Shown piece by piece: positions 17,284 to 31,561 of a DNA stretch of 40,664 bases. Origin of the DNA: Maritimibacter sp. (lineage in GTDB: Bacteria > Pseudomonadota > Alphaproteobacteria > Rhodobacterales > Rhodobacteraceae); NCBI GenBank assembly GCA_002695005.1, contig NZNT01000018.1, forward strand, positions 1 through 40,664, read 5' to 3'. The stretch's first letter is position 1. Each line of letters starts with the position of its first letter. A model generated the notes under the pieces. It had not been told where the DNA came from and did not search any database. It worked only from the letters and a program-made list of their open reading frames with translations. Position numbers and translations under genes: made by a program.

Positions 17284-17295
17284 TTAGATATGTAA
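17284..17295. promoter_or_regulatory. MarR-type operator copy upstream of the ABM protein gene
   Basis: TTAGATATGTAA matches the island's palindrome TTAG-N4-CTAA at seven of eight fixed positions. It lies about 100 bases before the ATG of the rightward ABM membrane protein, in an AT-rich stretch that probably holds its promoter. The other copies are at 20308, 23652, 23698 and 31539. Confidence 0.5.
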
Positions 17296-17392
17296 GGAAA
17301 TTGTTAAATCCCGTGCGGCTATCAGCTACAAGGAGCTATAGGTCCAGTCTTACCTTTAGAAACATGCTCAAGCTCAGTTGGAGACAGCCTAC

Positions 17393-17962
17393 ATGGTCGA
17401 TGCAAGATTGCTTGAAGATCGGCAGAATAGCCTTCTGGTGGCACTTCGCGTGCGGCACCGCGACGGTGACAGGTGCGCGGAGTTGCTGCAGAAGCTGAAT
17501 GAGGTGCTTGTTCAGACAGAAGGCTTCAAGAGCCTCGACGTCATCCGCCGCGAGGGCGGGTTGGGCACGGATTTCTACGTCGTGGTGAGATTCCGGGACA
17601 GCGCAGCGCTTGATGCGTGGCGCAACTCGCCGAAGCGCGCGGCCGCCTTGGTCGACATCGAGGCCCTGGCGATAACGGACGTTTCACGTCAACAGGCTGC
17701 CGGGGCGAATATCTGGTTCGAGCCGGTTGGCTCACTCCCAAGCACACCACGCCCACCCCTGTTCTGGAAGCGTTGGGCCGTCAGCCTTCTGGCGGTCTAT
17801 CCGGCACTCATCGTCCTGGTGACGGTGTTGTCCCCGCTCACCTCACGCGTTCCCCAAGCCCTGGGGTTGTTGATCGTCGCGGTGATCCTGACCGGCCTCA
17901 CCACCGCGTTCATCGTTCCTTGGCTTACCCGGGCCCTGAATGGTTGGCTTACAGCACGCTGA
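17393..17962 (+). CDS. ABM-domain monooxygenase-like protein with two-helix membrane tail
   Basis: A 189-residue protein of the COG3224 type. Residues about 10-100 form an antibiotic-biosynthesis-monooxygenase (ABM, dimeric alpha-beta barrel) domain (ALRVRHRDGDRCAELLQKLN, FYVVVRFRDSAALDAWRNS). A proline-rich linker (PSTPRPPLFWKRWAV) leads to two membrane helices (about 128-150 and 158-178) and a short basic end. ATG 17393 was chosen because GGAG stands nine bases upstream. The domain often oxidises quinols or aromatics without cofactor, though no function is known for the membrane-bound form. It carries an operator copy upstream like the phthalate genes. Its membrane tail exists again as a separate protein at 20348-20587. 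Confidence 0.8.
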   Translation: MVDARLLEDRQNSLLVALRVRHRDGDRCAELLQKLNEVLVQTEGFKSLDVIRREGGLGTDFYVVVRFRDSAALDAWRNSPKRAAALVDIEALAITDVSRQQAAGANIWFEPVGSLPSTPRPPLFWKRWAVSLLAVYPALIVLVTVLSPLTSRVPQALGLLIVAVILTGLTTAFIVPWLTRALNGWLTAR

Positions 17963-18037
17963 CGCGCCAACCGGTACGGGCCCAGGCAATTGGACTCAAC
18001 TCGGACACACTGAAAGGCGTGGCTTTGGCCGGGCCAA

Positions 18038-18889
18038 TCAAAAATCGAGGCCGAAGTCCACCGTGCCGGCCGAATGGGTCAACGCGCCTGAAGAAATATA
18101 ATCGACGCCGGTCTCGGCAATTTCACGCAGGCGGTCCAACCGGACATTGCCGCTGGCCTCGGTTTTCATTCGTCCGTCAATTCGCTTCACGGCTTCCGCC
18201 ATGTCCGAGCTCGTCATGTTGTCGAAAAGAACAACGTCGGCGCCACCGACCTTGATCACCTCGTCGAGCTGGTCCAACCCGTCAATTTCAATCTCGACCA
18301 CGACCATGTGCCCGGCGTGCTTTTTGACGGCCTCCAGCACCTGCGTAACACCGCCTGCCGCGGCGATGTGGTTGTCCTTGATCAGGATCGCGTCGGACAA
18401 GGAAAATCGATGATTGTGGCCCCCGCCATGAAGAATGGCGAGCTTTTCGGCCAGCTTCAGGCCCGGCGTGGTCTTGCGCGTACAAGTAATGCGGGTCCCG
18501 GTCCCCGACACCGCCTTCACGTATGAGGCCGTCATCGTAGCCGTTCCCGACAGGCGACCAGCAAAATTCAAGGCTACGCGTTCCCCCGCGAGAATGGAGG
18601 CGGCCGCACCTTCGATCTTCATCAGGGTATCGCCGGCCTTGCATGCGGAACCATCGGCAACGATCGTCTCAACGCGCAGTTCGGGGTCGATCAGGCGAAA
18701 GGCAAGCGCTGCCAGTTGCATCCCGGAGACCACGGCGTCCTGCCGGGCGACCATTTCCGCATTGTACTGGGTGCCCTCCGGAAGAACTGCGCGCGTCGTT
18801 ACGTCACCGGCAGTTCCCATATCCTCCATGATCGCGTTGCGCACCATCGGCTCAAGGATGATGTTAGGAACAGAAGCAGCGGTATTCAC
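18038..18889 (-). CDS. nadC: nicotinate-nucleotide pyrophosphorylase (quinolinate phosphoribosyltransferase)
   Basis: A 283-residue NadC that turns quinolinate and PRPP into nicotinate mononucleotide, CO2 and PPi. Family marks are present in order: EDMGTAGDVTT at the N-terminus, the binding segment CTRKTTPGLKLAEK, GGGHNHR, then ILIKDNHI, VEIEIDGLDQ, DVVLFDNM, EASGNV and ISSGALTHS. GTG 18889 is the likely start, with AAGGA 9 bases upstream. It stands alone, without nadA or nadB, directly downstream of the phthalate-type Rieske gene. Phthalate is a known analogue inhibitor of this enzyme. From memory, a linked QPRTase gene was shown to be needed for growth on phthalate in Burkholderia cepacia DBO1. 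A protective second copy is therefore the best reading. Confidence 0.93.
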   Translation of the reverse strand: MNTAASVPNIILEPMVRNAIMEDMGTAGDVTTRAVLPEGTQYNAEMVARQDAVVSGMQLAALAFRLIDPELRVETIVADGSACKAGDTLMKIEGAAASILAGERVALNFAGRLSGTATMTASYVKAVSGTGTRITCTRKTTPGLKLAEKLAILHGGGHNHRFSLSDAILIKDNHIAAAGGVTQVLEAVKKHAGHMVVVEIEIDGLDQLDEVIKVGGADVVLFDNMTSSDMAEAVKRIDGRMKTEASGNVRLDRLREIAETGVDYISSGALTHSAGTVDFGLDF

Positions 18890-18928
18890 GGTTTGAAGTC
18901 CTTCGTATTGAGTTACGGGCGCCAATCA

Positions 18929-18959
18929 CACAGGGCGCGAGTGCTCCTCACGCCCTGTG
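18929..18959 (-). terminator. 9-bp stem-loop between Rieske gene and nadC
   Basis: CACAGGGCG (18929-18937) and CGCCCTGTG (18951-18959) form a perfect stem with a 13-base loop in the gap between the Rieske stop and the nadC start. There is no T-run on the minus strand. It may partly terminate or protect the upstream mRNA, setting a lower level of nadC than of the oxygenase. Confidence 0.45.
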
Positions 18960-18983
18960 AACGCCCTGCTTTGAAAGGGAACC

Positions 18984-20264
18984 CTATTCGGCGGCCTGCG
19001 AGTCAGCCTTCGGGTTGACCAGGGTGCGCCAGTCGACGTCCTTGGAATAGACGCCCTCATGCGAGGCTATCAGCGCTTGCGGCACTTCGGCGTCGGTGCC
19101 GATGGCACGACCGCCTTCGGCGACCTTCTGCGCCGCATCCACCATAAGGCGGCGGAATTCCACGATTGCCAGGTCCGAGGCGCCGAGCGTGTCGGTTTCG
19201 CGCTGCACGCGGCTCCCCATGGACACCCACATGACGATATCCTCGTTAGGGATGCCGTCGACCCCTGTAAAATGCCCTTCCGCCATACGTTCGCGGTCTT
19301 GCAGGAAATCGTTTTCCAGCGTTCGCACGGGCCGCCACTTGTCGTCGACATCGACCCCCGGTACCGCATGGGCAAACTTGCGCCATTCCTCCGTCGAGGG
19401 CACGTTCGGACCACCAAACGCGATAAAGTGGAAGGCGGTCTCGTCATCGTTAATCGGCACGATCACGCTGGCCACTTTGTAGTTGTTGTTCGGCGGGATC
19501 AACGAATAGTAAGGTGCCACGAACTCGGTGATCCGCAGGTAGTTGTGGGTCTTCGCGTTCTTGATCGGCTTGCGGATCGCGGCGTAGTGGAAACCGTAAC
19601 TTGTGGTCTCGGTTTGCATCCGCGGCGACTTGTCCGTCGATGGCCGATACCAGGACTTTTCGTCCGACGAAGCGCCTTCGACCCGCGCCGGAACCATGTT
19701 GGAGGAGTGCAGCGACGAGCTATGCGCGCTGTCGATTTGACCTTCGTGGATCTGCGCCCAGTTAGCCGGCACGCGGATCTTGAGGATCGAAACCTTCGTG
19801 TCTTCCTCGGGGGCGAAGGCCGGCGGCTGGAACTCCGGCATCTCGTCGCGGTCGCCAAGCCAGGCCCAAACGAAACCGCCCCACTCGCGCACCGGGTAGG
19901 CGCGTGCTTTGACCTTGTCCATGAGGGGGCTGCCTTCCGGTTCGGAAGACATCGCAACCACGTTGCCATCCACATCCATCTTCCAGCCGTGGTAGAGGCA
20001 GCGCAGTCCGCAATCCTCGTTGCGGCCATAAACCAGCGACGCTTTGCGATGCGGACAAAGCTCGTCGAGCATGCCCAAGCGGCCCTTGGTGTCGCGGAAA
20101 GCGACATAGCTCTCCCCCAGAACCTCGACGCGTAGCGGCTTGCCGTCGTTCTCGGCTACCTCTTCGATGAGACAGACGGGTGTCCAGTGCTGGCGCATGA
20201 GCTTTGCCATCGGGGCATCCCCGGTCACTCGCGTCAGCAGCTCGTTTTCTTCATATGTCAGCAT
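18984..20264 (-). CDS. pht3: phthalate 4,5-dioxygenase-type Rieske oxygenase, alpha subunit
   Basis: A 426-residue Rieske non-haem iron oxygenase of the phthalate dioxygenase class. The [2Fe-2S] ligands are C70 and H72 (CPHR) and C89 and H92 (CLYHGW). The mononuclear iron site is HEGQIDSAHSSSLH, with D178, H181 and H186, and the C-terminal acidic ligand is probably in NEDIVMWVSMGS. In this class no beta subunit or separate ferredoxin is needed, which fits the single reductase at 30530-31468. ATG 20264 was chosen over a TTG at 20282 because GGAGGAG lies six bases before it. It has its own promoter with an operator (20303-20332). The reaction would be phthalate to cis-4,5-dihydrodiol. An analogous ring diacid cannot be excluded. 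Confidence 0.82.
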   Translation of the reverse strand: MLTYEENELLTRVTGDAPMAKLMRQHWTPVCLIEEVAENDGKPLRVEVLGESYVAFRDTKGRLGMLDELCPHRKASLVYGRNEDCGLRCLYHGWKMDVDGNVVAMSSEPEGSPLMDKVKARAYPVREWGGFVWAWLGDRDEMPEFQPPAFAPEEDTKVSILKIRVPANWAQIHEGQIDSAHSSSLHSSNMVPARVEGASSDEKSWYRPSTDKSPRMQTETTSYGFHYAAIRKPIKNAKTHNYLRITEFVAPYYSLIPPNNNYKVASVIVPINDDETAFHFIAFGGPNVPSTEEWRKFAHAVPGVDVDDKWRPVRTLENDFLQDRERMAEGHFTGVDGIPNEDIVMWVSMGSRVQRETDTLGASDLAIVEFRRLMVDAAQKVAEGGRAIGTDAEVPQALIASHEGVYSKDVDWRTLVNPKADSQAAE

Positions 20265-20302
20265 GTCGTTCTCCTCCAGCAAGTGCAGAAATTTTCCACA
20301 TC

Positions 20303-20332
20303 TATTCTTAGCTATCTAATTTTTTTTGTCAA
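20303..20332 (-). promoter_or_regulatory. Rieske gene promoter with embedded palindromic operator
   Basis: On the minus strand a perfect -35 box TTGACA (20332-20327) is followed after 17-18 bases by AAGAAT/AGAATA as a weak -10. The exact palindrome TTAGATAGCTAA (minus strand; 20308-20319) fills the spacer and touches the -10. A repressor here would block RNA polymerase. The same layout occurs at 31533-31561. Confidence 0.7.
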
Positions 20333-20347
20333 GCTAGGCCGGCGGCG

Positions 20348-20587
20348 TCATCGCTGCAGCCAGCCTGCGAGACAGCGGTGCAGAAAGGGAAGGATCAACC
20401 CAGTGGACAATCCTGTCAGGCACAGGGCAACCAGAAAAAGTACGGCCGGTGTAGGCACGCCTTTTAGTAGGCTGCGCGAGGCGTATACGAGTAGCACAAG
20501 CGGCGGGTAGACCGCGAGCATACTAATGGCCCAACGTTTCCAGAAAGGCGGAGTTCTCGGGGTCGATGTTGCGCGCGTTTCGGCCAC
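20348..20587 (-). CDS. small two-helix membrane protein, free-standing COG3224 tail domain
   Basis: A 79-residue protein starting at GTG behind AAAGGAACAGAC. It consists of a short polar head, the motif TPRTPPFWKRWAISMLAVYP, a first membrane helix, a loop (LLKGVPTPA), a second helix with LTGLSTGLILP and a basic end. It aligns along its whole length with the C-terminal 80 residues of the ABM protein at 17393-17962 (FWKRWA..LAVYP, VP......LLIVA..LTGL.T....P.L.R.L.GWL). The catalytic ABM domain is absent. It lies 72 bases downstream of the TRAP permease, so it may be co-transcribed with the importer. Its function is unknown. Confidence 0.82.
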   Translation of the reverse strand: MAETRATSTPRTPPFWKRWAISMLAVYPPLVLLVYASRSLLKGVPTPAVLFLVALCLTGLSTGLILPFLHRCLAGWLQR

Positions 20588-20659
20588 GTCTGTTCCTTTG
20601 TATCAGCATCGGTAGAAGTCATTCGGTCGGCCGGGCGCAAGAACCGCGCCCGGCCTTTC

Positions 20660-22567
20660 TCAGGCACTGGTCTCTTTCTGTGGGCCACCGCCGCGCATCA
20701 GCAGGGCGTAACGTCCGGCGAATGCGAGGATCACCAGAATCCCGCCCAACGCCACGAGCGTGAAAGGCATCACGGCGGCGGCCGCAGCCAATGTCAGCAC
20801 CAGTCGTTCCACGCGCCCCAGCGGCAACCCGATTGAGCCTTCCACCGACACCGCGATCGCCAGCGTGGCCAGCACCCCGCCAGACACCGCGATGACATTG
20901 AACAGCGGATCCGACAGCAAAAGCAGACCGGGGTTGAACACGAAGGCGAAGGGCAGAAGGAAACCGACGACTGCCAGCCGCACCGCCGAAAACGCGATCT
21001 TGAATGGATCCTCGTCCGCGATCGCCGCGGCCGCGAGAGCCGCGACTGCGATCGGCGGTGTCAGCGCCGACAACACGGCGTAGTAGAGCAGGAACATATG
21101 GCTCTGGAGGATCGGGAATCCGAGTTTTGCCAGCGCCGGCCCCACCAGAACGGCGGCGAGGATGTAGGCACTGGGCGTCGGCATTCCGAGGCCGAGAATG
21201 ATCGTCACGATGGCCGCGATCACCAGTGTCACACCGGGCTGGCCATTACTGATCGTCAGGATCACGTTGGCCGCTTTCATGCCGAGACCGGTCATCGACA
21301 GGCCGCCGATCACCAGGCCGGCGGCCGCACAGGCACCCGCGACCGGCAGAATCCGCAGCGTGGTCTCGCCGAGCCCTTCGACGATTTGCCAGGGCCGCAA
21401 GCGTGTCGCCTTCGTCAGCATGGAGGCAACGACGGCACCGACGACGCCGGCGCCTGCGGTGAAAGTGGGTGAATAGCCTGCGACCAGCGCCGCGACGATC
21501 CCCGCGATGGGGATCAGGAAGACCCAGCCGGTGCGGAAGGTCTCTTTCGCCGTCGGAATCTCGTCGTCCGAGGGGCGCAGGTTGAGACGAACCGCTCGCA
21601 GGTGCACCTGTGTGAAGACGCCCATATAATATAGAAGCGCGGGGACCAGCGCGGCGAAGACCACCTGCTGGTAGGCCACGCCGGTGTATTCGGCGAGGAT
21701 GAAGGCAGCAGACCCCATGATCGGCGGCATGGCACTGCCACCGGTGGAGGCCGCGACCTCGACCGCGGCGGCGAAGCGCGCGCGGTACCCCAACCGCTTC
21801 ATGACCGGGATCGTGATTGAGCCGGTGGCCACCACGTCCGACGTAGGGCTGCCGGACATCGTGCCGTACAGGCCGGAAGAGATGACCGCGATCTTGGCGG
21901 GACCACCGCGCGACCGGCCAGTGACCAACGATGCGATGTTGAAGAAGAACTCTCCACCGCCGGCCTTCGACAGGAATGTCCCGAACATGACGAACAGGAA
22001 GACATAGCTCGCGACGACCTGGATCGGAACACCGAAGACGCCATCGGTCGTGAAGACGAGAATATCCAGAAGGTAGCTGAATTCATCTACGCCATGCCCG
22101 AAGGGAGGGGGCAGCAGGTAGCCGAACAAGTTGTAGACCAGAAAGAGCACGACGACACCGGTCAGACCGAGCCCGGTGGTGCGCCTGGTGGCCTCCAACG
22201 TTAGTAGTAGCAACGCGGTGCCGAAAAACAGCTGCGCCGGTGTGAAGGCATGCAGAAGGCTGATCCGGTCAGCAATAGCGCTCGCGTTTACGAAAAAGAA
22301 TATCCCGCACGCCAAGCTCAGCGCCGACAGCGCCCAATCGTAGAGCGGGATGTGGTCCGGCGCACGAGGCGTGGCCCCGATTGCGCCGAACATGATCGTG
22401 TAGATGCCGCAGACGAAGAGAATCCCCAGGATGAGTGGATCCGAGATCGTGAACAGGTTCGCGTAGATGACCCAGGCCGCGAAAACCGCCGCGACGACGA
22501 TCAACACTCGCTGCGAACCTGCCGCAAGCTTGCGCCTGCGGCCGGTGGCGACGAGAGAACCAATCAC
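20660..22567 (-). CDS. TRAP transporter fused permease (4TM-12TM type)
   Basis: A 635-residue membrane protein in which the small and large TRAP subunits are fused, the usual partner of TAXI binding proteins. The N-terminal quarter holds about four to five helices. The DctM-like part holds GSPTSDVVATGSITIPVMKRL, then GYRARFAAAVEVAASTGGSAMPPIMGSAAFI, and later ALTPPIAVAALAAAAIA. The start is GTG, overlapping the TAXI stop (GTGA), so the two are translationally coupled. It should carry out sodium-driven uptake of an organic anion. The operator-bearing promoter upstream of the TAXI gene ties it to the phthalate regulon, making phthalate or a related acid the likely cargo. Confidence 0.92.
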   Translation of the reverse strand: MIGSLVATGRRRKLAAGSQRVLIVVAAVFAAWVIYANLFTISDPLILGILFVCGIYTIMFGAIGATPRAPDHIPLYDWALSALSLACGIFFFVNASAIADRISLLHAFTPAQLFFGTALLLLTLEATRRTTGLGLTGVVVLFLVYNLFGYLLPPPFGHGVDEFSYLLDILVFTTDGVFGVPIQVVASYVFLFVMFGTFLSKAGGGEFFFNIASLVTGRSRGGPAKIAVISSGLYGTMSGSPTSDVVATGSITIPVMKRLGYRARFAAAVEVAASTGGSAMPPIMGSAAFILAEYTGVAYQQVVFAALVPALLYYMGVFTQVHLRAVRLNLRPSDDEIPTAKETFRTGWVFLIPIAGIVAALVAGYSPTFTAGAGVVGAVVASMLTKATRLRPWQIVEGLGETTLRILPVAGACAAAGLVIGGLSMTGLGMKAANVILTISNGQPGVTLVIAAIVTIILGLGMPTPSAYILAAVLVGPALAKLGFPILQSHMFLLYYAVLSALTPPIAVAALAAAAIADEDPFKIAFSAVRLAVVGFLLPFAFVFNPGLLLLSDPLFNVIAVSGGVLATLAIAVSVEGSIGLPLGRVERLVLTLAAAAAVMPFTLVALGGILVILAFAGRYALLMRGGGPQKETSA

Positions 22568-23547
22568 TTGATCAGCCCCGCTTCCTCATATGCCTTCGCG
22601 GCACCCGGGTGGAACTCGAGCACGCTGGGCGTGGCGAGAAGCTCGGGCGAAAGTTGCTTCATCGAGCTGTGCACGGCGCGCACTTCGTCGATGTTTTTCA
22701 CCAGCGAGCTTGCCAACGAGTAGGCGGTCTCTTCGGACATGGAGTCATTGGCCACGAGCAGCGCGCCGAGCGCGGAAGTGGTCACATCCGCTTCCTGGTT
22801 CGAGTAGCTACTGGCCGGGATGGTCATCGTGCCGGTGCCGAATTCCTCATTGGTGGCCGTGACCACGTCTTCCGGAACTTCGAGCAGAATGACGTCGTTG
22901 TTCTCGTCCACCGAGCGGAACGACGAGTGGTTGATGAAGATCCCGTTCGTGATCATGTCGAGACGACCATCCTGAATCAGGTCCGCCTGCTCGTTGGCAC
23001 CCGCACGCACGAATTGCCCGCCGGCATCTGTGAGGCTTTCCTCGGTCACGCCCGCCTCTTCCAGCATGAACAACGCCACATTGGACGTGATGTTGCCCGA
23101 GCGGTTGATGCCGATGCGAAGCGCCGCGCCGCTGCCGGCGATGTCGTCGAGGCTGTCGATGTCGTACTCCTCGGCCACGGCCTTATCGAGGAAGAAGTGC
23201 ATCGGCGCCCAGTTGTACATGTAGCCGATGGCACGCATGTTCTCGATGGGCTCAGCAAACGGCTCTCCGCCCTGGAGAGCGATCTGCGCTTCGGCGTCGT
23301 GCAACAGGCCCAAGTCGGTCCGGTCACTGCCAAGAAGACCGATGTTGGCGAAGCCGCCACCGGTCGCCTGATACGTGACGACAGAATCGCCGTCGTCGGC
23401 CTTGACGGCACGGTCGATGCCGGCACCCAGAAGCGACCACAGGCCACCCGGGCTGCCACCCGACAGGGTAAGGTTCACAGGATCGGCGGACACCGCCGTC
23501 GATGAGATCGCGAGGCCGAGCGTCGCGGCCAGAATCGAGTACTTCAT
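22564..23547 (-). CDS. TAXI-family TRAP solute-binding protein
   Basis: A 327-residue periplasmic binding protein of the TAXI class. It has a signal peptide (about 1-21, cut at VSA-DP), then LTLSGGSPGGLWSLLGAGI, the typical TAXI opening, GGGFANIGLLGSDRTDLGLL and ALRIGINRSGN. It binds the cargo for the fused permease that overlaps its stop. GGGAGGAGACTC precedes the ATG. The 5' region carries two palindromic operator copies flanking a TTGACG -35 box. TAXI ligands known to me are amino or organic acids, and an aromatic diacid would be new or rare. Confidence 0.93.
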   Translation of the reverse strand: MKYSILAATLGLAISSTAVSADPVNLTLSGGSPGGLWSLLGAGIDRAVKADDGDSVVTYQATGGGFANIGLLGSDRTDLGLLHDAEAQIALQGGEPFAEPIENMRAIGYMYNWAPMHFFLDKAVAEEYDIDSLDDIAGSGAALRIGINRSGNITSNVALFMLEEAGVTEESLTDAGGQFVRAGANEQADLIQDGRLDMITNGIFINHSSFRSVDENNDVILLEVPEDVVTATNEEFGTGTMTIPASSYSNQEADVTTSALGALLVANDSMSEETAYSLASSLVKNIDEVRAVHSSMKQLSPELLATPSVLEFHPGAAKAYEEAGLIK

Positions 23548-23651: not shown

Positions 23652-23709
23652 TTAGACGTCTACTTTCCTAGCTGCGATATTTTGCCACGTCAAGAAATTA
23701 GATATCTCA
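23652..23709 (-). promoter_or_regulatory. TAXI-TRAP promoter with two operator copies
   Basis: The minus-strand -35 box is TTGACG (23693-23688) with a poor -10 (TAGGAA). Downstream of it lies TTAGACGTCTAC (23652-23663, with perfect inner TAGACGTCTA). Upstream lies TTAGATATCTCA (23698-23709, inner AGATATCT). Each differs from TTAG-N4-CTAA at one position. Two sites around one promoter suggest stronger or cooperative repression. Confidence 0.6.
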
Positions 23710-23843: not shown

Positions 23844-24389
23844 TCAAATCTTGGCCAGTGATCGGGTCGGCGGGACACGAAGTCCGCGCGCAGCACCATC
23901 TTTCTCATCTTGTTCGAGATTGCGGATGATGGTCGTCAAACCGTGTCGCAGGACCTTCACTTCGACTTCGCTTAACCCCTTGACCGCGATATCGTTGCTC
24001 TCCACCGCCATCGGCTCAAGCACGTCGCGCAATTCCCAGCCACGCTCGGTCAGAAAGGCATGCACGCGCCGCTTGTTATCGCCGACGTTGCGCCGTGCGA
24101 TGAAGCCCTGCTCCTCCATCCGAAGAAGCGCGGTGTGGGTCGTGGGCTCCGTGAGGTTTGCGCGCTCGGCCAGTTCACGTTGCGACAGGCCGTCCGATTT
24201 CCAAAGAATGCGAAGGAAAATCCATTGCCCGAAGGTCACACCTTCGCTGGTCAGGCGCATCTGAAGCGAACGGTTGAAAGACCGCGCGGCGAGCCGGATG
24301 AGACGAGCGAGACGTTCTTCGTCGTAATCCGGGGCTCCGCCGGCCTTGGGGGCCGGCGTCTTACCCCCTGCCGAAATTTCATCGCTCAT
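23844..24389 (-). CDS. MarR-family transcriptional regulator
   Basis: A 181-residue MarR regulator. After a 25-residue flexible head rich in Ala, Gly and Pro comes a helical dimer part. The winged helix-turn-helix follows (LSQRELAERANLTEPTTHTA, LLRMEEQGFIARRNVGDNKR), about residues 68-112. The C-terminal helices include a charged tail. It sits between the TAXI-TRAP unit and the ThDP-ALDH-pht unit, in the middle of the island. I infer that it binds the TTAG-N4-CTAA palindrome found before four units and is released by phthalate or a catabolite. No clear copy is seen before its own gene. No other intact regulator lies in the island. Confidence 0.92.
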   Translation of the reverse strand: MSDEISAGGKTPAPKAGGAPDYDEERLARLIRLAARSFNRSLQMRLTSEGVTFGQWIFLRILWKSDGLSQRELAERANLTEPTTHTALLRMEEQGFIARRNVGDNKRRVHAFLTERGWELRDVLEPMAVESNDIAVKGLSEVEVKVLRHGLTTIIRNLEQDEKDGAARGLRVPPTRSLAKI

Positions 24390-24507: not shown

Positions 24508-24533
24508 AGGAATGAGCATACCCGCTCATTCCT
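24508..24533 (-). terminator. stem-loop terminator of the long pht operon
   Basis: AGGAATGAGC (24508-24517) and GCTCATTCCT (24524-24533) form a perfect 10-bp stem with a six-base loop. It overlaps the stop of the second ThDP gene, the last gene of the leftward six-gene unit. On the minus strand a short TTTAGG follows. It should end or weaken transcription before the MarR gene. Confidence 0.6.
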
Positions 24534-26277
24534 GCGTCATTCCTGCCGCCATTGCCTCGCTGTAGCCGGGACGCACGCGGACGTCGACCACCGCGACGGA
24601 TCCACGGCCGACCGCGGCGATCGCCTCGGCAAATACCTCGCCCAAGTCTTCCATCCTGTCCACGGGACCGAAGGCCTCGGCCCCCTGGGCGCGCGCCATG
24701 GCGGCGATATCGATGTCCGGCTCGTCGATGGCCTGGCCTACGTGCTTGTTTTCGACGGGGCGGCCGCGGTCGCGGGCAACACGCTCCTGGTGGATTTCGT
24801 CGTTGAAGTAGGACCGGTTGTTGGCCACCACGATCAGCAAGGGCACCTCGTGATGCACGGCCGTCCATAGCGCCGTGCAGCCCATCAGGAAATCCCCGTC
24901 CCCCAGCACTGCAACCGGCAAACGCCCCTGCCCGCGCAGCGCCAAGGCAGAGCCGACCGCCATGCCGGGGCCAGAGCCGATGCCGGCACCGCCATCGTAG
25001 CCGAGGTAATCCAAGGGTGCCGCGAAGTCACATTTCTCGCCGTTCCAGCTGAGCGTCAACCGCAGGTAGCTGGGCTCATGCCCCCGCACCGCCAGGGCCA
25101 AGGCGTCTGCAAGGCTGTCGACTGAGATTTCGCCTTTCGCCCGTGGCTTGGGATCAGCGACCAAGAGCGCCTGTTCGCCCTGCTCCGCGACGTGACCGAT
25201 GTCGCAAAGCGCTTTGACCACATCATCGGGGCGCGCCAATAGCGTGAAATCCGTGGCTGGCATCGCCTGGTGGTCCAGCGACCAACCGTTCTGAAGAAAG
25301 GGCTCGAGCGTCACGTTAACCACGCGGGTCGCGCCGGGCTTCAACCCGGCCTGATCCAGTGTCCCCGCAAGGTCGACCCAGTCGAAGGAAACGACAAGAT
25401 CCGCGTCCGCGATCACCTTGCCCGCTTCGGGCGAGAGGAAGTAGCCCGGCGCTCCAGCATGCAGCGGATGGCGCGTCGGGAAGGCGGCCGCGACCTTGAT
25501 GTCGGTCACCACCCTGGCGCCGAAGCGTTCGGCCAGCGCAACCCGGCGCTCCCAGTCTCGGCCATCGCGTGAAACCCGCCCCATCAGGAAAACCGGCGCC
25601 TCTGCGCCCTCGAGCATGTCCCACAACTTTTTCGCATCCGGCGCGGCAACAGCAGGAAGCTGCGGGGCCGCGTAGCGCGCCGGGTCGGGAAGCGCCGGCA
25701 GGACATCCAGCTTTTCTTCCTGAACGCTCACGTCGAAACAGACATAGGTGGGCGCCATCGGGGGCGTGGCCGTGATCGACGCGGCGCGCAGCATGGATGC
25801 CAGCGAGGCATCAAGCGAGGCCGGCTGGTCGTCCCACTTCACGTAAGGACGCACCACCGCCGCCTGGTCCCGCGAGGTATGCAACCAGTCGATCCACGGC
25901 CGCCGCTTGGCCGCATCGACCGGTCCGGTAGCGCCGTAGACAAGCATCGGTACCCGGTCGCACCAGGCGTTATATAGTGCCATCGCCGCATGCATGAGCC
26001 CCACGTTGGCGTGCAGGATCACGCCCAGGGGTTGCTCGGTCACCTTGGCCCAGCCGTGCGCGATCGCCACTGCGTGTTCTTCATGCAGGCACAGCAGCAT
26101 CTTGGGATCACGGTTCCCCAAGTGGTTCACGATACTGTCGTGCAGACCGCGAAAGCTGGATCCCGGGTTCAGCGCGACGTAGGGCGTGCCCAGCTCACGC
26201 ATCATCAATGCGATGGCATCGCTGCCGTATACGTCGGTGGTCTCGCAAGGAACCGGGCGGTCGATTTCGTCGCGCAT
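24526..26277 (-). CDS. ThDP-dependent decarboxylase-like enzyme of the phthalate island
   Basis: A 583-residue thiamine-diphosphate enzyme of the acetolactate synthase/benzoylformate decarboxylase superfamily. The activating Glu is around 66 in CLHEEHAVAIAHGWAK, and the ThDP/Mg motif runs from GDGD at 459 to NN at 486-487. ATG 26277 was chosen because GAGGAGGATCGCCCG leads into it. A longer start at 26307 would overlap the ALDH stop (ATGA) but has no good ribosome site. It ends the operon containing ALDH and the pht genes. ThDP decarboxylase plus aldehyde dehydrogenase is the pair that turns an arylglyoxylate or arylpyruvate into an aryl acid, as in mandelate degradation. Here it could feed a 2-carboxylated substrate into phthalate, which is speculation. 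Confidence 0.85.
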   Translation of the reverse strand: MRDEIDRPVPCETTDVYGSDAIALMMRELGTPYVALNPGSSFRGLHDSIVNHLGNRDPKMLLCLHEEHAVAIAHGWAKVTEQPLGVILHANVGLMHAAMALYNAWCDRVPMLVYGATGPVDAAKRRPWIDWLHTSRDQAAVVRPYVKWDDQPASLDASLASMLRAASITATPPMAPTYVCFDVSVQEEKLDVLPALPDPARYAAPQLPAVAAPDAKKLWDMLEGAEAPVFLMGRVSRDGRDWERRVALAERFGARVVTDIKVAAAFPTRHPLHAGAPGYFLSPEAGKVIADADLVVSFDWVDLAGTLDQAGLKPGATRVVNVTLEPFLQNGWSLDHQAMPATDFTLLARPDDVVKALCDIGHVAEQGEQALLVADPKPRAKGEISVDSLADALALAVRGHEPSYLRLTLSWNGEKCDFAAPLDYLGYDGGAGIGSGPGMAVGSALALRGQGRLPVAVLGDGDFLMGCTALWTAVHHEVPLLIVVANNRSYFNDEIHQERVARDRGRPVENKHVGQAIDEPDIDIAAMARAQGAEAFGPVDRMEDLGEVFAEAIAAVGRGSVAVVDVRVRPGYSEAMAAGMTQE

Positions 26278-26303
26278 CGGGCGATCCTCCTCGGGCGCGG
26301 GCT

Positions 26304-27785
26304 TCATTGACCGCCCAGGTTGATGTGAATGTTCTTTTCGTGGGTGAAGGACATCAGTTCGCCGATACCCTCCTCGCGCCCGATCCCCGACTGCTTCACA
26401 CCGCCGAAGGGCGCGCCGAGGAAGTGGCGCCCCACCTCGTTGATCCAGACGAACCCGGCTTCGACCCGGTTCGCGGCCCGGTGCGCCGTGGAAAGATCGC
26501 GGCTCCAGATCGCGCACGTCAGCCCCACGTCGAGCCCGTTGACCTCCGACAGCATCTCGGCTTCGTCGGACCAACGTCGCACCGCCAGGACGGGACCGAA
26601 GATCTCTTCGCGGGCGATGGTCATCCCGGGGGTCACGTCGGCGAAGATCGTGGGCGCGATGAAGCAGCCGTCCTCGAGCGGCCCGTCCGTGACGGCATGG
26701 CCACCGGCCACGACACGGGCGCCTTCCTGCTTCGCGCTGTCGATGAAGCCCATGACCCGGTCGAAATGCGCCCTGCTGACCAGCGAGCCCATCGTGGTGC
26801 CTTCCTCGGTGGGAATGCCAGGCTTGAAGCGCTTTACCTTATCGGCCAGCCGCTCGACAACGGCGTCGTGCAACTCGTCGTGAAGGAACGCTCTGCTGGT
26901 CGAACCGCAGGATTGGCCGCACCAGCCGAAGTTCATCCCCGCGACGATCGCGTCCGCCACCTTGTCTGGATCACTGTCCGGATAGGCGATCAGAGCGTTC
27001 TTACCGCCAAGTTCCAGAAGTACCGGCTTTATCGTGTCGCTGGCGCCATGCATCACGGCCCGGCCCGCGCCCACCGATCCGATCAGGGTCACCTTGGCGA
27101 CGTCCCGATGCGCAGCCAGACCAGCACCCGCTTCGGTGCCACCCGGCAGAACGGAAAAAACGCCAGCGGGCAGCAAGTCCTCGACGATTTCCGCCAGCCG
27201 CAGTGCCGAAAGCGGCGCCTGGACTGGCGGCTTGATGATAACCGCATTACCTGCCGCCAGCGGCGCGGCCATCTTGCCTCCACAGAACATGAACGGATGA
27301 TTGAATGCGAGGATGCGCGCCACCACCCCCATCGGCTCTCGCGTGGTCATGTTCACCCGCTCGGGGCCCATCGGGATCGTGTCGCCCTTCATCTCGGTCA
27401 CGAGGCCGGCGAAGAATTCCATTTGCGCGGCGGCGACGCCCGCGTCCCCTCGCATCTCGGTGTAAGGATTGCCACAGTTGGCCGCGTCGATCAGCGCCAA
27501 CTCGTCGCCGTGTTCGCGCAGCCGCGCGGCGATTTCCTTGAGAATCCGGGCCCGCTCCAGCGGTGCGACATCGCGCCATTCGCGAAAGCCTGCATCCGCG
27601 GCAACCACGGCAGCATCGACGTCGGCCTGAGTGGCCACGGCGACGGGTGCCAAGGCCTTGCCGGTCGCCGGATTCACCGTGTCTTCGTAACCGCCCGCGC
27701 TCGGCTTGTGCCAGCGCCCACCGTAATAGAGATCACGGTGTTTCGGCAGCGATGCCTCGATATCGAGGCGCGATGACTCGCCCAT
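26304..27785 (-). CDS. NAD(P)-dependent aldehyde dehydrogenase
   Basis: A 493-residue ALDH-superfamily enzyme. It contains the cofactor-binding segment FNHPFMFCGGKMAAPLAAGN, with IIKPP, then GSVGAGR. The general-base Glu is E258 in LELGGK and the catalytic Cys is C293 in GQSCGSTSR. The C-terminus has FGGVKQSGIGREEG. ATG 27785 was chosen, with GGAGGAG seven bases upstream. Its closest-looking relatives are betaine- or aryl-aldehyde dehydrogenases. It is cotranscribed with the pht genes and the ThDP enzyme. Oxidation of 2-formylbenzoate to phthalate is done by an ALDH in phenanthrene degraders, so that reaction is a fair guess. Confidence 0.93.
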   Translation of the reverse strand: MGESSRLDIEASLPKHRDLYYGGRWHKPSAGGYEDTVNPATGKALAPVAVATQADVDAAVVAADAGFREWRDVAPLERARILKEIAARLREHGDELALIDAANCGNPYTEMRGDAGVAAAQMEFFAGLVTEMKGDTIPMGPERVNMTTREPMGVVARILAFNHPFMFCGGKMAAPLAAGNAVIIKPPVQAPLSALRLAEIVEDLLPAGVFSVLPGGTEAGAGLAAHRDVAKVTLIGSVGAGRAVMHGASDTIKPVLLELGGKNALIAYPDSDPDKVADAIVAGMNFGWCGQSCGSTSRAFLHDELHDAVVERLADKVKRFKPGIPTEEGTTMGSLVSRAHFDRVMGFIDSAKQEGARVVAGGHAVTDGPLEDGCFIAPTIFADVTPGMTIAREEIFGPVLAVRRWSDEAEMLSEVNGLDVGLTCAIWSRDLSTAHRAANRVEAGFVWINEVGRHFLGAPFGGVKQSGIGREEGIGELMSFTHEKNIHINLGGQ

Positions 27786-27901
27786 CACAGGTCTCCTCCC
27801 CGTTTGTCGGGCGCGCGCCCTCTCCCAGAAGCCACGCCCATGAATTTGTCGTTTCGTGCCATATCGGCCGTCGGCGACGTCGCCACGACGTCTCTGCAGG
27901 T

Positions 27902-28348
27902 TCAGACCGCCATGTCGCTCAAGAGTTGCAGGAAACGCTTTCCGGACATCACTTCACGCAGAGGCAACTTGGCTTGCTCGGCGTCCAGTTCGGCGTCGTA
28001 TGACAGCCCGCGCCCGTCCCAGAACCACCAGTAGACGATCTCGCCCTGCTTGTCGCGGATCGGCATACGGAAGGTAGGGAACGCGCTGTACGCCTCGGGC
28101 ACGGCGACGTTTTCCACGAAACTGCACGCGGCGCCAGCCTGCGCCAGAGCCCGGTCGACCGGGATCATGGCCATGAACCGGGTCTCACCCGCGACCAGGG
28201 TACCAAGATCCGCGGGACGATCTTCGTGGAGCCCGTCCAGCGCGCGAACCACTGGCGGGTAACTCGGGTGCATATGCGTGACCTGCACGTAAGCAAGTCC
28301 GCCGTCGGTGGTGATTTCCAGCACGTCTCCGGGCTTCAGTTCACTCAT
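27902..28348 (-). CDS. uncharacterised 148-residue protein of the pht operon
   Basis: I do not recognise this family with certainty. It starts MSELKPGDVLEITTDGGLAY, a small beta-barrel-like opening (KPGDVLEI..DGG.AYVQVTH) seen in Imm26-like and other SH3-fold proteins. Further on it has YWWFWDGRGL and the end GKRFLQLLSDM. It has no signal peptide and no membrane helix. It lies 12 bases after the pht5-like gene and 117 before ALDH, all leftward. Its place inside the operon suggests an accessory role in the pathway, such as an effector-binding or small enzymatic protein. Confidence 0.75.
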   Translation of the reverse strand: MSELKPGDVLEITTDGGLAYVQVTHMHPSYPPVVRALDGLHEDRPADLGTLVAGETRFMAMIPVDRALAQAGAACSFVENVAVPEAYSAFPTFRMPIRDKQGEIVYWWFWDGRGLSYDAELDAEQAKLPLREVMSGKRFLQLLSDMAV

Positions 28349-28360
28349 CTTGCACCCCTT

Positions 28361-29353
28361 TCAAAGGCTGTAGGCTTCTTGCGTCGACGGATGGAACAAC
28401 TCGTCCACCGAAACGTGTCTCGGCGACAGTCCCTGCGCGTGGTGATAGCCGAGGAACTTCTCAAGCACGTGCGCATTGCCAACGACGCCGTATGTCCAGG
28501 GGTCCTGCCCCATCAGCGCCTGCGCCCGGTTCAGGTTATCCTCGACGAAGGGCATCGTGACCTTGGTCGCCGAGGTATCCTGCAGCGCGTCCTGCGCCAG
28601 CTTTTTCGATTCCGAGAATGCCTTGAGCAGAGCGCCGGGAAGCCAAGGGTGCTGGTCCGCCAGGGTGCGGCGCACTCCGAGCACATGCATGATCGGGAAC
28701 ACTTTGGTACGTCGGTAGAAATCTTCGGCAGCGCTCACGCTGTCGGAGAACAGCCGGCCCACGTGCGGATGCCCTTCGGCAAAGCAGCGCGGCCAGCGCG
28801 GACCGATGAACCCGTCGATCTCGCCCGCTTCCAGCATGCCGTTCAGGGTGGCACCCTCCGGCGCCGCCTCAACGGTCACATCTTCCGGCAGGTCGACCTT
28901 GATCTTCTCCGGACGGCCCGGCGTGTCCATGCCGCCGCGCACCCACGTGACATCCGACGGACGCACACCGAAGTCTTCCTCTAGGATGCCACGCACCCAG
29001 ACGTTGGCCGAAAGCTGATATTCGGCGATGCCGATCCGCTTGCCCCTCAGGTCTTCCGGCTTCTCGATGCCTTTGTCGGTGCGGATGTAGACCGAGGTGT
29101 GGCGGAATGCCCGGCTCAGGAACACCGGGATCGCAACGTAGTGCGGGTCACCGCGTGCAACAGAGATGGAGTACGACGAAAGCGACAGTTCCGAAATGTC
29201 GAAGGCCTGGTGGCGGAAGGCGCGGAAGAACATCTCCTCGGGCGAAAGCAGCATCGGAACCGGGTCCACCCCGTCGATCTTGACGCGACCGTCGACGATG
29301 GCCCGGGTCCGGTCGTAGTTGCCCATGGCGAGGGAAAGGGTCAGGTCGCTCAA
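28361..29353 (-). CDS. pht5: 4,5-dihydroxyphthalate decarboxylase
   Basis: A 330-residue protein of the Pht5/OphC family, which has the fold of ABC-transporter substrate-binding proteins but acts in the cytoplasm. There is no signal peptide. Recognised segments are LSLAMGNYDRTRAIVDGRVK at the start, FDISELSLSSYS, IPVFLSRAFRHTSVYIRTDK and GIAEYQLSANVWVRGIL. It removes one carboxylate from 4,5-dihydroxyphthalate to give protocatechuate. The start is TTG 29353, overlapping the stop of the pht4-like gene and preceded by GGAGGAG eight bases upstream. Operon neighbours are the dehydrogenase and reductase of the same pathway, which strengthens the call. Confidence 0.85.
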   Translation of the reverse strand: MSDLTLSLAMGNYDRTRAIVDGRVKIDGVDPVPMLLSPEEMFFRAFRHQAFDISELSLSSYSISVARGDPHYVAIPVFLSRAFRHTSVYIRTDKGIEKPEDLRGKRIGIAEYQLSANVWVRGILEEDFGVRPSDVTWVRGGMDTPGRPEKIKVDLPEDVTVEAAPEGATLNGMLEAGEIDGFIGPRWPRCFAEGHPHVGRLFSDSVSAAEDFYRRTKVFPIMHVLGVRRTLADQHPWLPGALLKAFSESKKLAQDALQDTSATKVTMPFVEDNLNRAQALMGQDPWTYGVVGNAHVLEKFLGYHHAQGLSPRHVSVDELFHPSTQEAYSL

Positions 29354-30540
29354 GGTGTCATCTCCTCCTTATAAATTCCGCATTGGCGCGTGAGTTCGGC
29401 CGCCACGCCGGTTTCGGCCGAGTGCAGGATTGCGTGGCAAACCTCGAGGCTCGCCCGCCCCCAACGCCCCGTCTGCGCCGGAGGTTTGTTGTGCCGCACC
29501 GCGGCCACCAGCGCATCGATCACTGTCTCGCGCGGGACAGTGCTCAGTGGCGTCTCCTCGAAGTGCCGCGCGAAGTCGCCGAAAACCTCCACACCGTCGG
29601 GAGTGAGGCGCAGGTCACCCCGGTCGCAGAGCACGATGACCGGGCCGAAATGTTCATGGTGACGCGCGGTCGGCGGGGCGTCTCCGGCGCCATAGGTCCG
29701 CGTGGTCTTGAGGCGAGCCTCCGCCTCGGCGTCGAGCCCCTCGAGCGCCCTACGGGCGCGGCCGTAGACTTCCGGTGACTTGTCGCCACCGAGTTCGGCC
29801 ACATTGTTCATCCAGATGTCGCTGTCGAAGTGGGCGTATCCCGAATAGGTCAGAGTGGCGAAGGCGCCGCCATGGAAGTCCATGAGGGCGGAATAGGCGC
29901 CTTCCGTCGGACGCGTCGGGTCCCAGGCCCCTGTCATCGCCGAGACACTGCGCCCGAGTCCGCCGCAGAGTAACCGCACGATGTCGATCTGGTGGACGCC
30001 CTGGCTGAACAACACGCCACCGCCCTCTTCGGTGCGCAACTCTTCGGGTCGGCGGGGACGGTAGAGGAAATCCGTGTAGTTGAAGGCCTGCACCATCCGC
30101 ACGGCGCCCAGCGCGCCGCTGTCGATCACCGCCCGCGCCTGCAGGACCGGCGCATCAAAGCTGTGACTTGGTCCCACGATCAAGTGGACTCCGGCGTCTT
30201 CGGCCGCATTCACCATCCGATCGGCATCGTCGAGCGTGACTGCCAGGGGCTTGTCGACGAGAATGTGTTTGCCATGACGCGCCGCAGCCTCGACGTGTTC
30301 GGCATGCATCTGATGCGGGGTCGCGACATAGATTGCTTCCACCTCCGGATCGGCGGCCATCGCTTCCACGTCCGAATACCCCGTGCCGCCGAACTCCGCC
30401 TCGAAGGCATCTCGGCTCTCGGCCCGCGGCGCGGCGCAGGCCACCAGTCGCACTCGCGTATCGGCGCGGAAGGTGGGCAGCATCAACATGAATGCGCGGC
30501 CCAGGCCCGCCACGCCGATGCGGACGGCGTCAGAGGTCAA
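29350..30540 (-). CDS. pht4: Gfo/Idh/MocA dehydrogenase, phthalate dihydrodiol dehydrogenase type
   Basis: A 396-residue Gfo/Idh/MocA oxidoreductase. The N-terminal Rossmann motif is IGVAGLGRAFML (residues 8-19). EAIYVATPHQMHAEH and GKHILVDKPLAV follow, the latter with the family's EKP-like catalytic lysine as DKP. The second domain includes GGVLFSQGVHQIDIVRLL, with the usual D-x-x-H-like region. Pht4/OphB enzymes of this superfamily oxidise the cis-4,5-dihydrodiol of phthalate to 4,5-dihydroxyphthalate with NAD. The start TTG 30540 overlaps the reductase gene and follows GAGGGGG. The downstream pht5-like gene overlaps its stop. Confidence 0.82.
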   Translation of the reverse strand: MTSDAVRIGVAGLGRAFMLMLPTFRADTRVRLVACAAPRAESRDAFEAEFGGTGYSDVEAMAADPEVEAIYVATPHQMHAEHVEAAARHGKHILVDKPLAVTLDDADRMVNAAEDAGVHLIVGPSHSFDAPVLQARAVIDSGALGAVRMVQAFNYTDFLYRPRRPEELRTEEGGGVLFSQGVHQIDIVRLLCGGLGRSVSAMTGAWDPTRPTEGAYSALMDFHGGAFATLTYSGYAHFDSDIWMNNVAELGGDKSPEVYGRARRALEGLDAEAEARLKTTRTYGAGDAPPTARHHEHFGPVIVLCDRGDLRLTPDGVEVFGDFARHFEETPLSTVPRETVIDALVAAVRHNKPPAQTGRWGRASLEVCHAILHSAETGVAAELTRQCGIYKEEMTP

Positions 30541-31468
30541 GAACGAGTTCCCCCTCTTTGGCTCGCGACACGCAGATCATGATGTTTTCGGACTTCTCCT
30601 CGTCCATGAGCACCATGTCGCGATGGTCTACCTCGCCCGAGAGCAAGCGCGTCTTGCACGTGCCGCAAGTGCCGCTTTCGCACGAACTCACTGTTGCCAC
30701 GCCCGCATCACGCAGCGCCTCGAGGATCGACCGATCCTCAGGAACCGTGACGCGCTTACCGGACTTTTCGAGCACAACGTCAAATGCCTTGTCGTCTTCG
30801 CGCACCACGTCAACCGGCTTGAAGTCTTCGAAGTTCACGCGCCCCTCCGGCCAGTGGCCGGAGATCGCCTCGATCTCCTCCATCAATGGCGCGGGCCCGC
30901 AGCAATAGACATGCATGTTCTTGGGCTCTTCGAAATGGTCCCAGAAATCGTAGACCTTCTCCGGGTCGCCTTCGTCGTGATGCACCAGAAGACGATCCCC
31001 GAAAGCTGCGCGCATCTCGTCGAGGTATGCCGTGTCCTCCGGGCTGCGCGTGCAGTAGATGATATTGAAGGGCTTGCCCTCGCGATCGAGTTGCTGCGCC
31101 ATGGAGTAGATCGGCGTCACCCCGATCCCACCGGCGATCAGCAGATATTCGTTCGCCTCGCCCATGGGAAAATCATTCTCGGGCGGCTCGACACGCAGTT
31201 CCGTGCCGACGGTCGCCTCGTCGTGCATGGACGCAGATCCCCCACGCGATTCCGGCTCCCGCTTGACCGCGATCTTGTACACCTCCGGGGCGCTGCCATC
31301 ATTGATCAGCGAATACCGGCGCATCGCCTTCGATGGCGTCTCTATCGTCACGTGCGCCCCGGGCTCGAACGTCGGCAGCTCGGCACCGTCCAACGGGGCG
31401 AGCGTGAATTCGCAAATCTGCTCGGTCAACGGCCGCCGAGCTTCGACGCGCATGGTCAGATCCGTCAT
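30530..31468 (-). CDS. pht2: phthalate dioxygenase reductase-type FMN/[2Fe-2S] protein
   Basis: A 312-residue electron-transfer protein. The order is FMN domain with RYSLIND (51-57), NADH domain with AGGIGVTPIYSM (112-123) and CCGP (189-192), then a C-terminal plant-type [2Fe-2S] domain with C263, C268, C271 and C299 (CESGTCGTC). This order is that of phthalate dioxygenase reductase and vanillate demethylase reductase. It would pass electrons from NADH to the Rieske oxygenase about 10 kb away. A perfect AAGGAGGT ribosome site lies five bases before the ATG. It is the first gene of the leftward six-gene unit, whose promoter carries the palindromic operator. Confidence 0.88.
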   Translation of the reverse strand: MTDLTMRVEARRPLTEQICEFTLAPLDGAELPTFEPGAHVTIETPSKAMRRYSLINDGSAPEVYKIAVKREPESRGGSASMHDEATVGTELRVEPPENDFPMGEANEYLLIAGGIGVTPIYSMAQQLDREGKPFNIIYCTRSPEDTAYLDEMRAAFGDRLLVHHDEGDPEKVYDFWDHFEEPKNMHVYCCGPAPLMEEIEAISGHWPEGRVNFEDFKPVDVVREDDKAFDVVLEKSGKRVTVPEDRSILEALRDAGVATVSSCESGTCGTCKTRLLSGEVDHRDMVLMDEEKSENIMICVSRAKEGELVLDL

Positions 31469-31532
31469 GAACCACCTCCTTCAAGCGCTCCCGCCGAACC
31501 CCGCGTCATACGGATCGTGGGCGCCGGAGAAC

Positions 31533-31561
31533 ATATATTTAGATTGCTAATTTGTTGTCAA
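31533..31561 (-). promoter_or_regulatory. promoter of the pht2 operon with palindromic operator
   Basis: On the minus strand TTGACA (31561-31556) and ATATAT (31538-31533) are 17 bases apart, a good sigma-70-type promoter. The exact palindrome TTAGCAATCTAA (31539-31550) fills the spacer next to the -10. This is the best preserved copy and the clearest case for repression. Confidence 0.75.

What the first reader, a model, noticed from the sequence alone, without database searches (positions are those of the whole stretch)
17284..31561. One palindrome, TTAG-N4-CTAA, marks four separate promoters of the phthalate island
Exact copies lie at 20308-20319 (Rieske) and 31539-31550 (reductase operon), both between a TTGACA -35 box and the -10. 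One-mismatch copies lie at 23652-23663 and 23698-23709 (TAXI-TRAP) and 17284-17295 (ABM protein). A single MarR gene (23844-24389) lies amid them. The inference is a MarR repressor governing a scattered regulon of uptake, oxygenation and accessory membrane proteins. This also brings the two otherwise unexplained membrane proteins into the phthalate response.
Basis: partly seen in the sequence, partly recalled or inferred. Interest (0 to 1): 0.8.

Follow-up and report, generated by a model that had tools for sequence, protein, structure and literature searches.

The report
Shared MarR operator of phthalate genes
A short palindrome sits in the promoters of a marine bacterium's phthalate uptake and breakdown genes and in the same promoters of many related bacteria, most likely as the switch worked by the MarR repressor encoded among them; this is a well-founded new case of a familiar kind of gene control.

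Summary
Exact TTAG-N4-CTAA lies at 20308 and 31539; one-mismatch copies at 17284, 23652 and 23698. The genome has five exact sites, two of them here. Footprinting settles its reality: exact sites in 26 of 27 non-redundant reductase and 23 of 26 Rieske upstream regions, first of 3,328 palindromes for both; 79 of 82 exact sites in 41 loci lie within 200 bp upstream of a cluster gene. The TAXI-TRAP promoter mostly has a pair of imperfect sites (20 of 24 with at least one site). The ABM site is weak. The Rieske protein matches phthalate dioxygenase PDO-KF1, with its phthalate-binding residues. MarR and Rieske co-occur (17 of 18 genomes each, among 295). Best explanation: this MarR represses uptake and oxygenation promoters through a SlyA-type operator and lets go on phthalate or an intermediate; binding and effector are inferred. 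A second NadC, whose human counterpart is inhibited by the quinolinate mimic phthalate, lies in the regulon and entered phthalate clusters repeatedly. New member of a known kind.

The parts
31539..31550 (.). operator, exact TTAG-N4-CTAA, in the promoter of the reductase operon
   Evidence: exact in 26 of 27 non-redundant upstream regions
20308..20319 (.). operator, exact, in the promoter of the Rieske (phthalate dioxygenase) gene
   Evidence: exact in 23 of 26 non-redundant upstream regions; promoter
23698..23709 (.). imperfect operator, upstream member of the TAXI-TRAP pair
23652..23663 (.). imperfect operator, downstream member of the TAXI-TRAP pair, 46 bp centre to centre
17284..17295 (.). 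imperfect, weakly supported site upstream of the ABM protein gene
   Evidence: same site only in the window and the near-identical L069
31556..31561 (-). -35 box TTGACA of the reductase operon
   Evidence: sequence; aligned
20304..20332 (-). Rieske promoter: TTGACA, 17 nt, AAGAAT
23844..24389 (-). MarR-family regulator, the likely repressor
   Evidence: Pfam MarR 44.9 bits against cut-off 24.6; conserved in the cluster
22564..23547 (-). TAXI solute-binding protein
   Evidence: TIGR02122, 143.1 bits against 84.35
20660..22567 (-). fused TRAP permease
   Evidence: TIGR02123, 552.3 bits against 320.65
18984..20282 (-). phthalate 4,5-dioxygenase-type Rieske oxygenase
   Evidence: PDB 7fjl E 1.9e-173; residues compared with PMC12445078
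18038..18925 (-). second NadC (quinolinate phosphoribosyltransferase), 58 bp behind the Rieske gene
   Evidence: TIGR00078, 313.7 bits against 198.4; the other copy G000:C20 is 66% identical
30530..31468 (-). phthalate dioxygenase reductase
   Evidence: PDB 2pia E 4.7e-94
29350..30540 (-). Gfo/Idh/MocA dehydrogenase, likely dihydrodiol dehydrogenase
   Evidence: Pfam; function from place in the cluster
28361..29353 (-). substrate-binding-protein-fold enzyme, likely 4,5-dihydroxyphthalate decarboxylase
   Evidence: Pfam NMT1; function from place in the cluster, compare PMC9604089
26304..27788 (-). aldehyde dehydrogenase, possibly 2-carboxybenzaldehyde dehydrogenase
   Evidence: Pfam Aldedh; PhdK of Thalassospira
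24526..26574 (-). ThDP-dependent enzyme (true start probably later than that of the mechanical ORF)
   Evidence: domain match begins at residue 117
17378..17962 (+). ABM-domain protein with a hydrophobic C-terminal part
   Evidence: Pfam ABM 30.3 bits against 23.1; sequence

Best explanation
TTAG-N4-CTAA is the operator of the MarR-family protein encoded at 23844-24389. Without inducer the MarR dimer sits on the palindrome, which lies in the spacer of the reductase promoter, overlaps spacer and -10 of the Rieske promoter and flanks the TAXI-TRAP promoter in a pair, and so keeps RNA polymerase off. When phthalate, or an early product of it, enters and binds the dimer, it leaves the DNA, and uptake, ring dihydroxylation, dehydrogenation and decarboxylation are switched on together. 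Genes behind these promoters (NadC behind the Rieske gene; dehydrogenase, decarboxylase, aldehyde dehydrogenase, ThDP enzyme and possibly marR itself behind the reductase) follow. Shown here: the sites, their conservation, their place and the co-occurrence with MarR. Inferred: that this MarR is the binder, that it represses, and that phthalate or an intermediate is the effector.
For: Sites confirmed. Exact site in 26 of 27 non-redundant reductase and 23 of 26 Rieske upstream regions (shuffle means 0.045 and 0.055); TTAG-N4 is first of 256 half-sites times 13 spacings at both, the next being its own overlapping form CTTA-N6-TAAG with 8 and 12. 79 of 82 exact sites in L056-L096 lie within 200 bp upstream of one of ten cluster genes; exact sites before internal genes: gfo 0 of 19, x28 0 of 21, trapM 0 of 26, dcx 0 of 28. 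Where the aldehyde dehydrogenase stands apart it has its own exact site (5 of 22 non-redundant regions exact, 12 of 22 within one mismatch). MarR at E 1e-20 or better in 17 of the 18 family genomes with the Rieske orthologue and in 18 of 295 in all. In 12 more distant or divergent clusters, the 10 with a MarR orthologue in the genome or record have an exact site before the Rieske, reductase or operon-head gene; the 2 without have no exact site there. The site matches the SlyA consensus TTAGCAAGCTAA (PMC5797941, passages).
Against: No binding or expression data. Most loci were found through MarR, so co-occurrence in them is by construction; the Rieske-anchored count is the fair one, and its 1e-20 cut for MarR was set after seeing the list. 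The distant comparison is small (10 of 10 against 0 of 2, Fisher 0.015), partly hand-picked, and G118 has a one-mismatch site without a MarR hit (genome 84% complete). Two related clusters with 39-43% identical MarR but a 30% identical Rieske protein (L054, L055) have no site at all. L057 has no site before its Rieske gene, and 6 of 43 loci have none before the TAXI gene. Another MarR gene of this genome, at G000:C25, has an exact site at its own start, so another MarR protein could read the same word. The MarR gene lacks its own site (0 of 34 exact, 3 of 34 within one mismatch against a shuffle mean of 0.8); many MarR genes are autoregulated (recalled).
Confidence: 0.82

Rival explanations
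1. The palindrome is a real operator but is read by another MarR-family protein of the genome, the local MarR being a bystander or a co-regulator.
For: A MarR gene at G000:C25 has an exact site at its start, and an acidobacterial MarR locus (L097) has several sites just upstream: the word is not private to this MarR.
Against: The local MarR travels with the cluster (17 of 18 Rieske genomes) and the sites travel with both into other classes. The window's lysR and gntR had no match (E at most 1e-8, at least 40% of the query in one piece) in the 63 loci; a 30% LysR match appeared in L134 alone of 18 loci.
Confidence: 0.09
2. The MarR protein activates rather than represses, or does both at different promoters (for example at the TAXI-TRAP pair).
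For: Some MarR proteins activate (PMC4737184, passage); the upstream TAXI site lies before the -35-like TTGACG.
Against: At the Rieske and reductase promoters the operator lies between or over the -35 and -10 elements, the usual place for a repressor.
Confidence: 0.08
3. The match is chance or a by-product of AT-rich promoters.
For: A short word; the genome has 71 sites within one mismatch; the ABM site alone could be chance.
Against: Shuffled controls and internal-gene controls.
Confidence: 0.01

Closest known systems
SlyA-type MarR operator
   Same: Same half-sites and spacing: consensus TTAGCAAGCTAA, relaxed TTAN6TAA (PMC5797941, passages).
   Different: In E. coli SlyA activates by antagonising H-NS (abstract in the listing); here the sites are confined to one catabolic island. 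The protein does not reach the SlyA model cut-off (31.5 against 120 bits).
CouR, a MarR repressor of aromatic catabolism
   Same: One MarR repressor, one inverted repeat at several promoters of one pathway, overlapping a promoter element (PMC4737184, passages).
   Different: CouR's box is cATTGA-N5-TCAATg over the -35 box, one copy serving couR itself, and its effector is p-coumaroyl-CoA; here no site was found at marR and the effector is probably a free acid (inference).
phdK-pht cluster of Thalassospira with a MarR gene and TRAP transporter
   Same: Same enzymes, TRAP transporter and MarR gene (PMC9604089, passages); L094 and L095 are Thalassospira loci.
   Different: The passages that I read name the MarR gene only; no operator or regulon.
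IphR of the isophthalate operon of Comamonas sp. E6
   Same: A repressor of a phthalate-isomer pathway (PMC13040137, passage).
   Different: Other isomer; the passage does not give IphR's family.

Membership tests
MarR family transcription factor | MarR winged-helix domain above the curated cut-off | tested here: met
   PF01047 44.9 bits against 24.6
MarR family transcription factor | binds an inverted repeat as a dimer | not testable with these tools
   no binding data; only the palindrome and its conservation
SlyA proper | reaches the NCBIfam SlyA equivalog cut-off | tested here: not met
   31.5 bits against 120
HpaR | reaches the TIGR02337 cut-off | tested here: not met
   47 bits against 121.2
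SlyA-type operator | TTAG-N4-CTAA palindrome at the promoter | tested here: met
phthalate 4,5-dioxygenase pathway | oxygenase with the PDO-KF1 phthalate-binding residues S182, R207, R244 | tested here: met
   aligned to S188, R213, R250 of the window protein (positions counted by eye); 7FJL is PDO of C. testosteroni KF-1 (PMC12445004, passage)
phthalate 4,5-dioxygenase pathway | PDR-type reductase | tested here: met
   2pia E 4.7e-94
phthalate 4,5-dioxygenase pathway | dihydrodiol dehydrogenase and 4,5-dihydroxyphthalate decarboxylase | tested here: inconclusive
   fold families fit; activity assigned by place in the cluster
autoregulated MarR regulon | operator of the same kind directly before the marR gene | tested here: not met
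   0 of 34 non-redundant marR upstream regions exact

The most novel reading that the evidence does not exclude
The regulon carries an NAD-protection arm. Phthalate is a mimic of quinolinate and blocks NadC, or the dioxygenase eats quinolinate; a spare NadC, placed behind MarR-controlled promoters and recruited to phthalate clusters several times independently, keeps NAD synthesis going while the cell is flooded with phthalate. In addition the transporter promoter keeps a pair of imperfect operators while the enzyme promoters keep a perfect one, so that uptake is derepressed first.
Probability: 0.4. Interest if true: 0.62.

Novelty: new member of a known kind. Interest (0 to 1): 0.46.

Why it matters
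It gives a precise, cheaply testable operator and candidate sensor for o-phthalate pathways of marine bacteria and, with lower certainty, of some beta- and gammaproteobacteria. A recent review says that known o-phthalate gene clusters offer genetic elements for biosensors (PMC13040137, passages); in its main text the search term for MarR met only an author name. The recurrent second NadC points to a cost of growing on phthalate that simple growth experiments can test.

Tried and rejected
Chance: rejected for three promoters by shuffles and by internal genes as controls. A genome-wide regulon: the three exact sites elsewhere lie near an HNH-like and a DNA methyltransferase-like gene (C2), beside insertion-sequence-like genes (C9) and at another MarR gene (C25); these names are by eye from the translations, and I saw no further phthalate genes in the stretches listed. 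Autoregulation of marR: no exact site. Regulation by the window's LysR or GntR: no match in the 63 loci at its thresholds; a 30% LysR match in L134. HpaR or SlyA membership: below cut-offs. Papers: ten searches of the library showed me no description of this operator or of a MarR repressor shown to control an o-phthalate cluster; I saw listings with the starts of abstracts, and passages of PMC5797941, PMC13040137, PMC9604089, PMC12445078, PMC12445004, PMC4737184, PMC4726147 and PMC11683335; most subscription papers are not held. Rows left out: searches used 51 loci (window, L056-L096, L045-L053); L036-L043 are the same records as named loci; L044 was left out by oversight and has one exact site between the Rieske and reductase genes; L054, L055, L097 and L098 were left out as not orthologous and were looked at. 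Upstream regions were thinned by shared 8-mers. In the NadC tree 2 of 24 matches (L076, L082, under 200 aligned residues) were dropped, and some branches are long.
Full report
The observation. The genome of 4.27 Mb has only five exact sites, two of them in this contig, and 71 sites within one mismatch, nine of them here (Poisson 0.0011 and 4.5e-8). The motif is not common genome-wide: its backward control has more places (9 exact, 545 within one mismatch). The three exact sites elsewhere are near genes that look unrelated to phthalate; one lies at the start of another MarR gene. Four of the nine window sites (486, 9747, 12571, 13358) are not in the promoters named and I take them as background, 9747 perhaps excepted (between lysR and a dctP-type gene).

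The genes. The oxygenase at 18984-20282 matches the crystal sequence 7fjl (E 1.9e-173), which is phthalate dioxygenase of Comamonas testosteroni KF-1 (PMC12445004, passage). The residues reported as key for phthalate, S182, R207 and R244 (PMC12445078, passages), align with S188, R213 and R250 here (counted by eye in the alignment). The reductase matches 2pia, phthalate dioxygenase reductase. With a Gfo/Idh/MocA dehydrogenase, an NMT1-fold enzyme in the place of 4,5-dihydroxyphthalate decarboxylase, an aldehyde dehydrogenase and a TAXI-TRAP transporter, this is the pht pathway; a similar set with a MarR gene has been described in Thalassospira (PMC9604089, passages), and TAXI-TRAP uptake of o-phthalate is known in denitrifiers (PMC13040137, passage). 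'Phthalate island' is a fair name.

Footprinting. I collected MarR orthologues from 295 family genomes (47 with a match at 1e-10; 18 at 1e-20) and 43 named loci from the species collection, and mapped the cluster in them. A site with at most one mismatch is present in 44 of 44 reductase, 42 of 43 Rieske (not L057) and 37 of 43 TAXI upstream regions of 300 bp. After thinning for shared sequence, exact sites are in 26 of 27 reductase and 23 of 26 Rieske regions, against shuffle means of 0.045 and 0.055, and TTAG-N4 is first among 256 half-sites times 13 spacings at both. At the TAXI gene 20 of 24 have a site within one mismatch but only 4 an exact one; 33 of 43 loci have two or more sites there, as pairs 43-47 bp apart like the window's or 14 bp apart as in Pelagimonas and Phaeobacter. 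In the 6 TAXI regions without a site (L045, L048, L049, L051, L094, L095) five have the TAXI gene directly behind the aldehyde dehydrogenase on the same strand, with one-mismatch sites before the latter; L049 is the exception. Internal operon genes are clean of exact sites: gfo 0 of 19, dcx 0 of 28, x28 0 of 21, trapM 0 of 26, tpp 0 of 23; marR 0 of 34 (within one mismatch: dcx 1, tpp 1, marR 3). Where the aldehyde dehydrogenase stands apart it has a site (5 of 22 exact, 12 of 22 within one mismatch). In all, 79 of 82 exact sites in the 735 kb of L056-L096 are within 200 bp upstream of a cluster gene (these loci include near-copies).

The regulator. In the same 295 genomes the Rieske orthologue is in 18; 17 of them have the MarR at 1e-20 or better, and one genome (G128) has the MarR without a Rieske match, its contig ending near the cluster (the cut was set after seeing the list, the next match being 9.9e-17). 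Of 12 further clusters (G118, G177, four genomes of a 398-genome phylum sample, and six plasmid records that I chose from the 40 listed of 45), 10 have a MarR orthologue in the genome or record and an exact site before the Rieske, reductase or operon-head gene; G118 (one-mismatch site, no MarR) and the Sphingobium plasmid (no site near the Rieske gene, only a 32% MarR about 69 kb away) do not. The orthologues of these ten are only 37-50% identical. In the Acidovorax and Pseudomonas luteola clusters the exact site lies before the first gene of the unit, not directly before the Rieske gene. Against the reading, two clusters with a 39-43% identical MarR but a different Rieske enzyme (L054, L055) have no site. 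The sequence matches the SlyA consensus. MarR and Rieske distances correlate at 0.88 over 1,275 pairs, but so do other gene pairs of the cluster (0.79-0.88), so this shows common descent of the cluster, not contact.

Mechanism. The operator lies between the -35 and -10 elements, reaching the -10 of the Rieske promoter, as expected for a repressor that blocks RNA polymerase. The promoter scan itself found no excess of promoter-like sites (1 against 2.4 in shuffles); the boxes are trusted because TTGAC stands at about the same distance from the operator in most rows. That the local MarR is the binder is the best inference from comparison; that phthalate or a product is the effector follows from what the genes do. 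marR lacks its own site; in the window it is the seventh gene downstream of the reductase promoter in the same direction and may be read from there.

The ABM protein. The 17284 site is shared only with the near-identical locus L069. It would pass the relaxed SlyA consensus TTAN6TAA. Gene order speaks for membership: homologues at 61% and 64% identity lie directly behind the Rieske gene in L056 and L058, and in L066 an exact site lies 203 bp upstream of a 60% homologue that precedes the reductase. In the window the gene points towards the Rieske-nadC pair and is not part of that unit. A 79-residue frame between the Rieske and TRAP genes resembles the ABM protein's end (by eye; tblastn matches of that part lie at the same place in other loci) and has no Pfam match.

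A second NadC. The gene 58 bp behind the Rieske gene is a NadC; the genome has another, 66% identical. NadC genes lie in 16 of the 51 loci used, so in a minority: behind the Rieske gene here, behind the aldehyde dehydrogenase with its exact site in loci such as L074, and inside the reductase unit in Thalassospira. Of the 18 Rieske genomes of the family sample, 3 (G000, G229, G161) have any NadC match at 1e-30, and these 3 have both an island copy and another; the other 15 have no NadC match. That fits a spare enzyme needed only where the quinolinate route exists, but three cases are few. Two Thalassospira genomes, G313, G674 and G679 have two copies, one in the cluster; G680 has a single match, the one in the cluster. 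In a tree of 22 rows the island label needs four changes, all forced by well-supported branches (some long branches), so recruitment more than once is likely. Phthalate binds the human enzyme as tightly as quinolinate does (Kd 5.2 and 4.8 uM, PMC4726147, passages). I read this as protection of NAD synthesis; it is untested.

Verdict. A real, widely conserved operator of a local MarR regulon: a new member of a known kind. I found no print description of it in the ten library searches named under Tried and rejected.

Noticed in passing
18038-18925: Second nadC inside the phthalate regulon, probably recruited to phthalate clusters more than once; phthalate is a quinolinate mimic.
   Followed up: partly
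20348-20587, minus strand: 79-residue membrane-like frame (GTG start) between the Rieske and TRAP genes that resembles the C-terminal end of the ABM protein; similar matches lie at the same place in other loci.
   Followed up: partly
31939-32340: C-terminal part of a LysR-type gene behind a run of G near 31870; apparently a broken gene. Described only.
   Followed up: no
L069 and L073 (Maritimibacter harenae): Two copies of the cluster in one genome, MarR 100% and 97% identical to the window's; the matches in L069 are split, cause not examined.
   Followed up: no
13777-17130: IS21-type istA/istB genes and, by eye, further transposase-like remains (no Pfam match above cut-off for 16400-16786) border the island on the ABM side.
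   Followed up: no
9747-9758: One-mismatch site between lysR and a dctP-type gene; not tested for conservation.
   Followed up: no
G000:C25:59781-59792 (L132): Exact palindrome with a one-mismatch neighbour at the start of an unrelated MarR gene: possible autoregulation by another protein.
   Followed up: partly
L097:3926-3996: Four sites within one mismatch, one of them exact, just upstream of an acidobacterial MarR gene.
   Followed up: no
L054 and L055: Clusters with a related MarR (39-43%) beside a different Rieske gene (30%) and no TTAG-N4-CTAA site: the operator or regulator specificity may have changed there.
   Followed up: no
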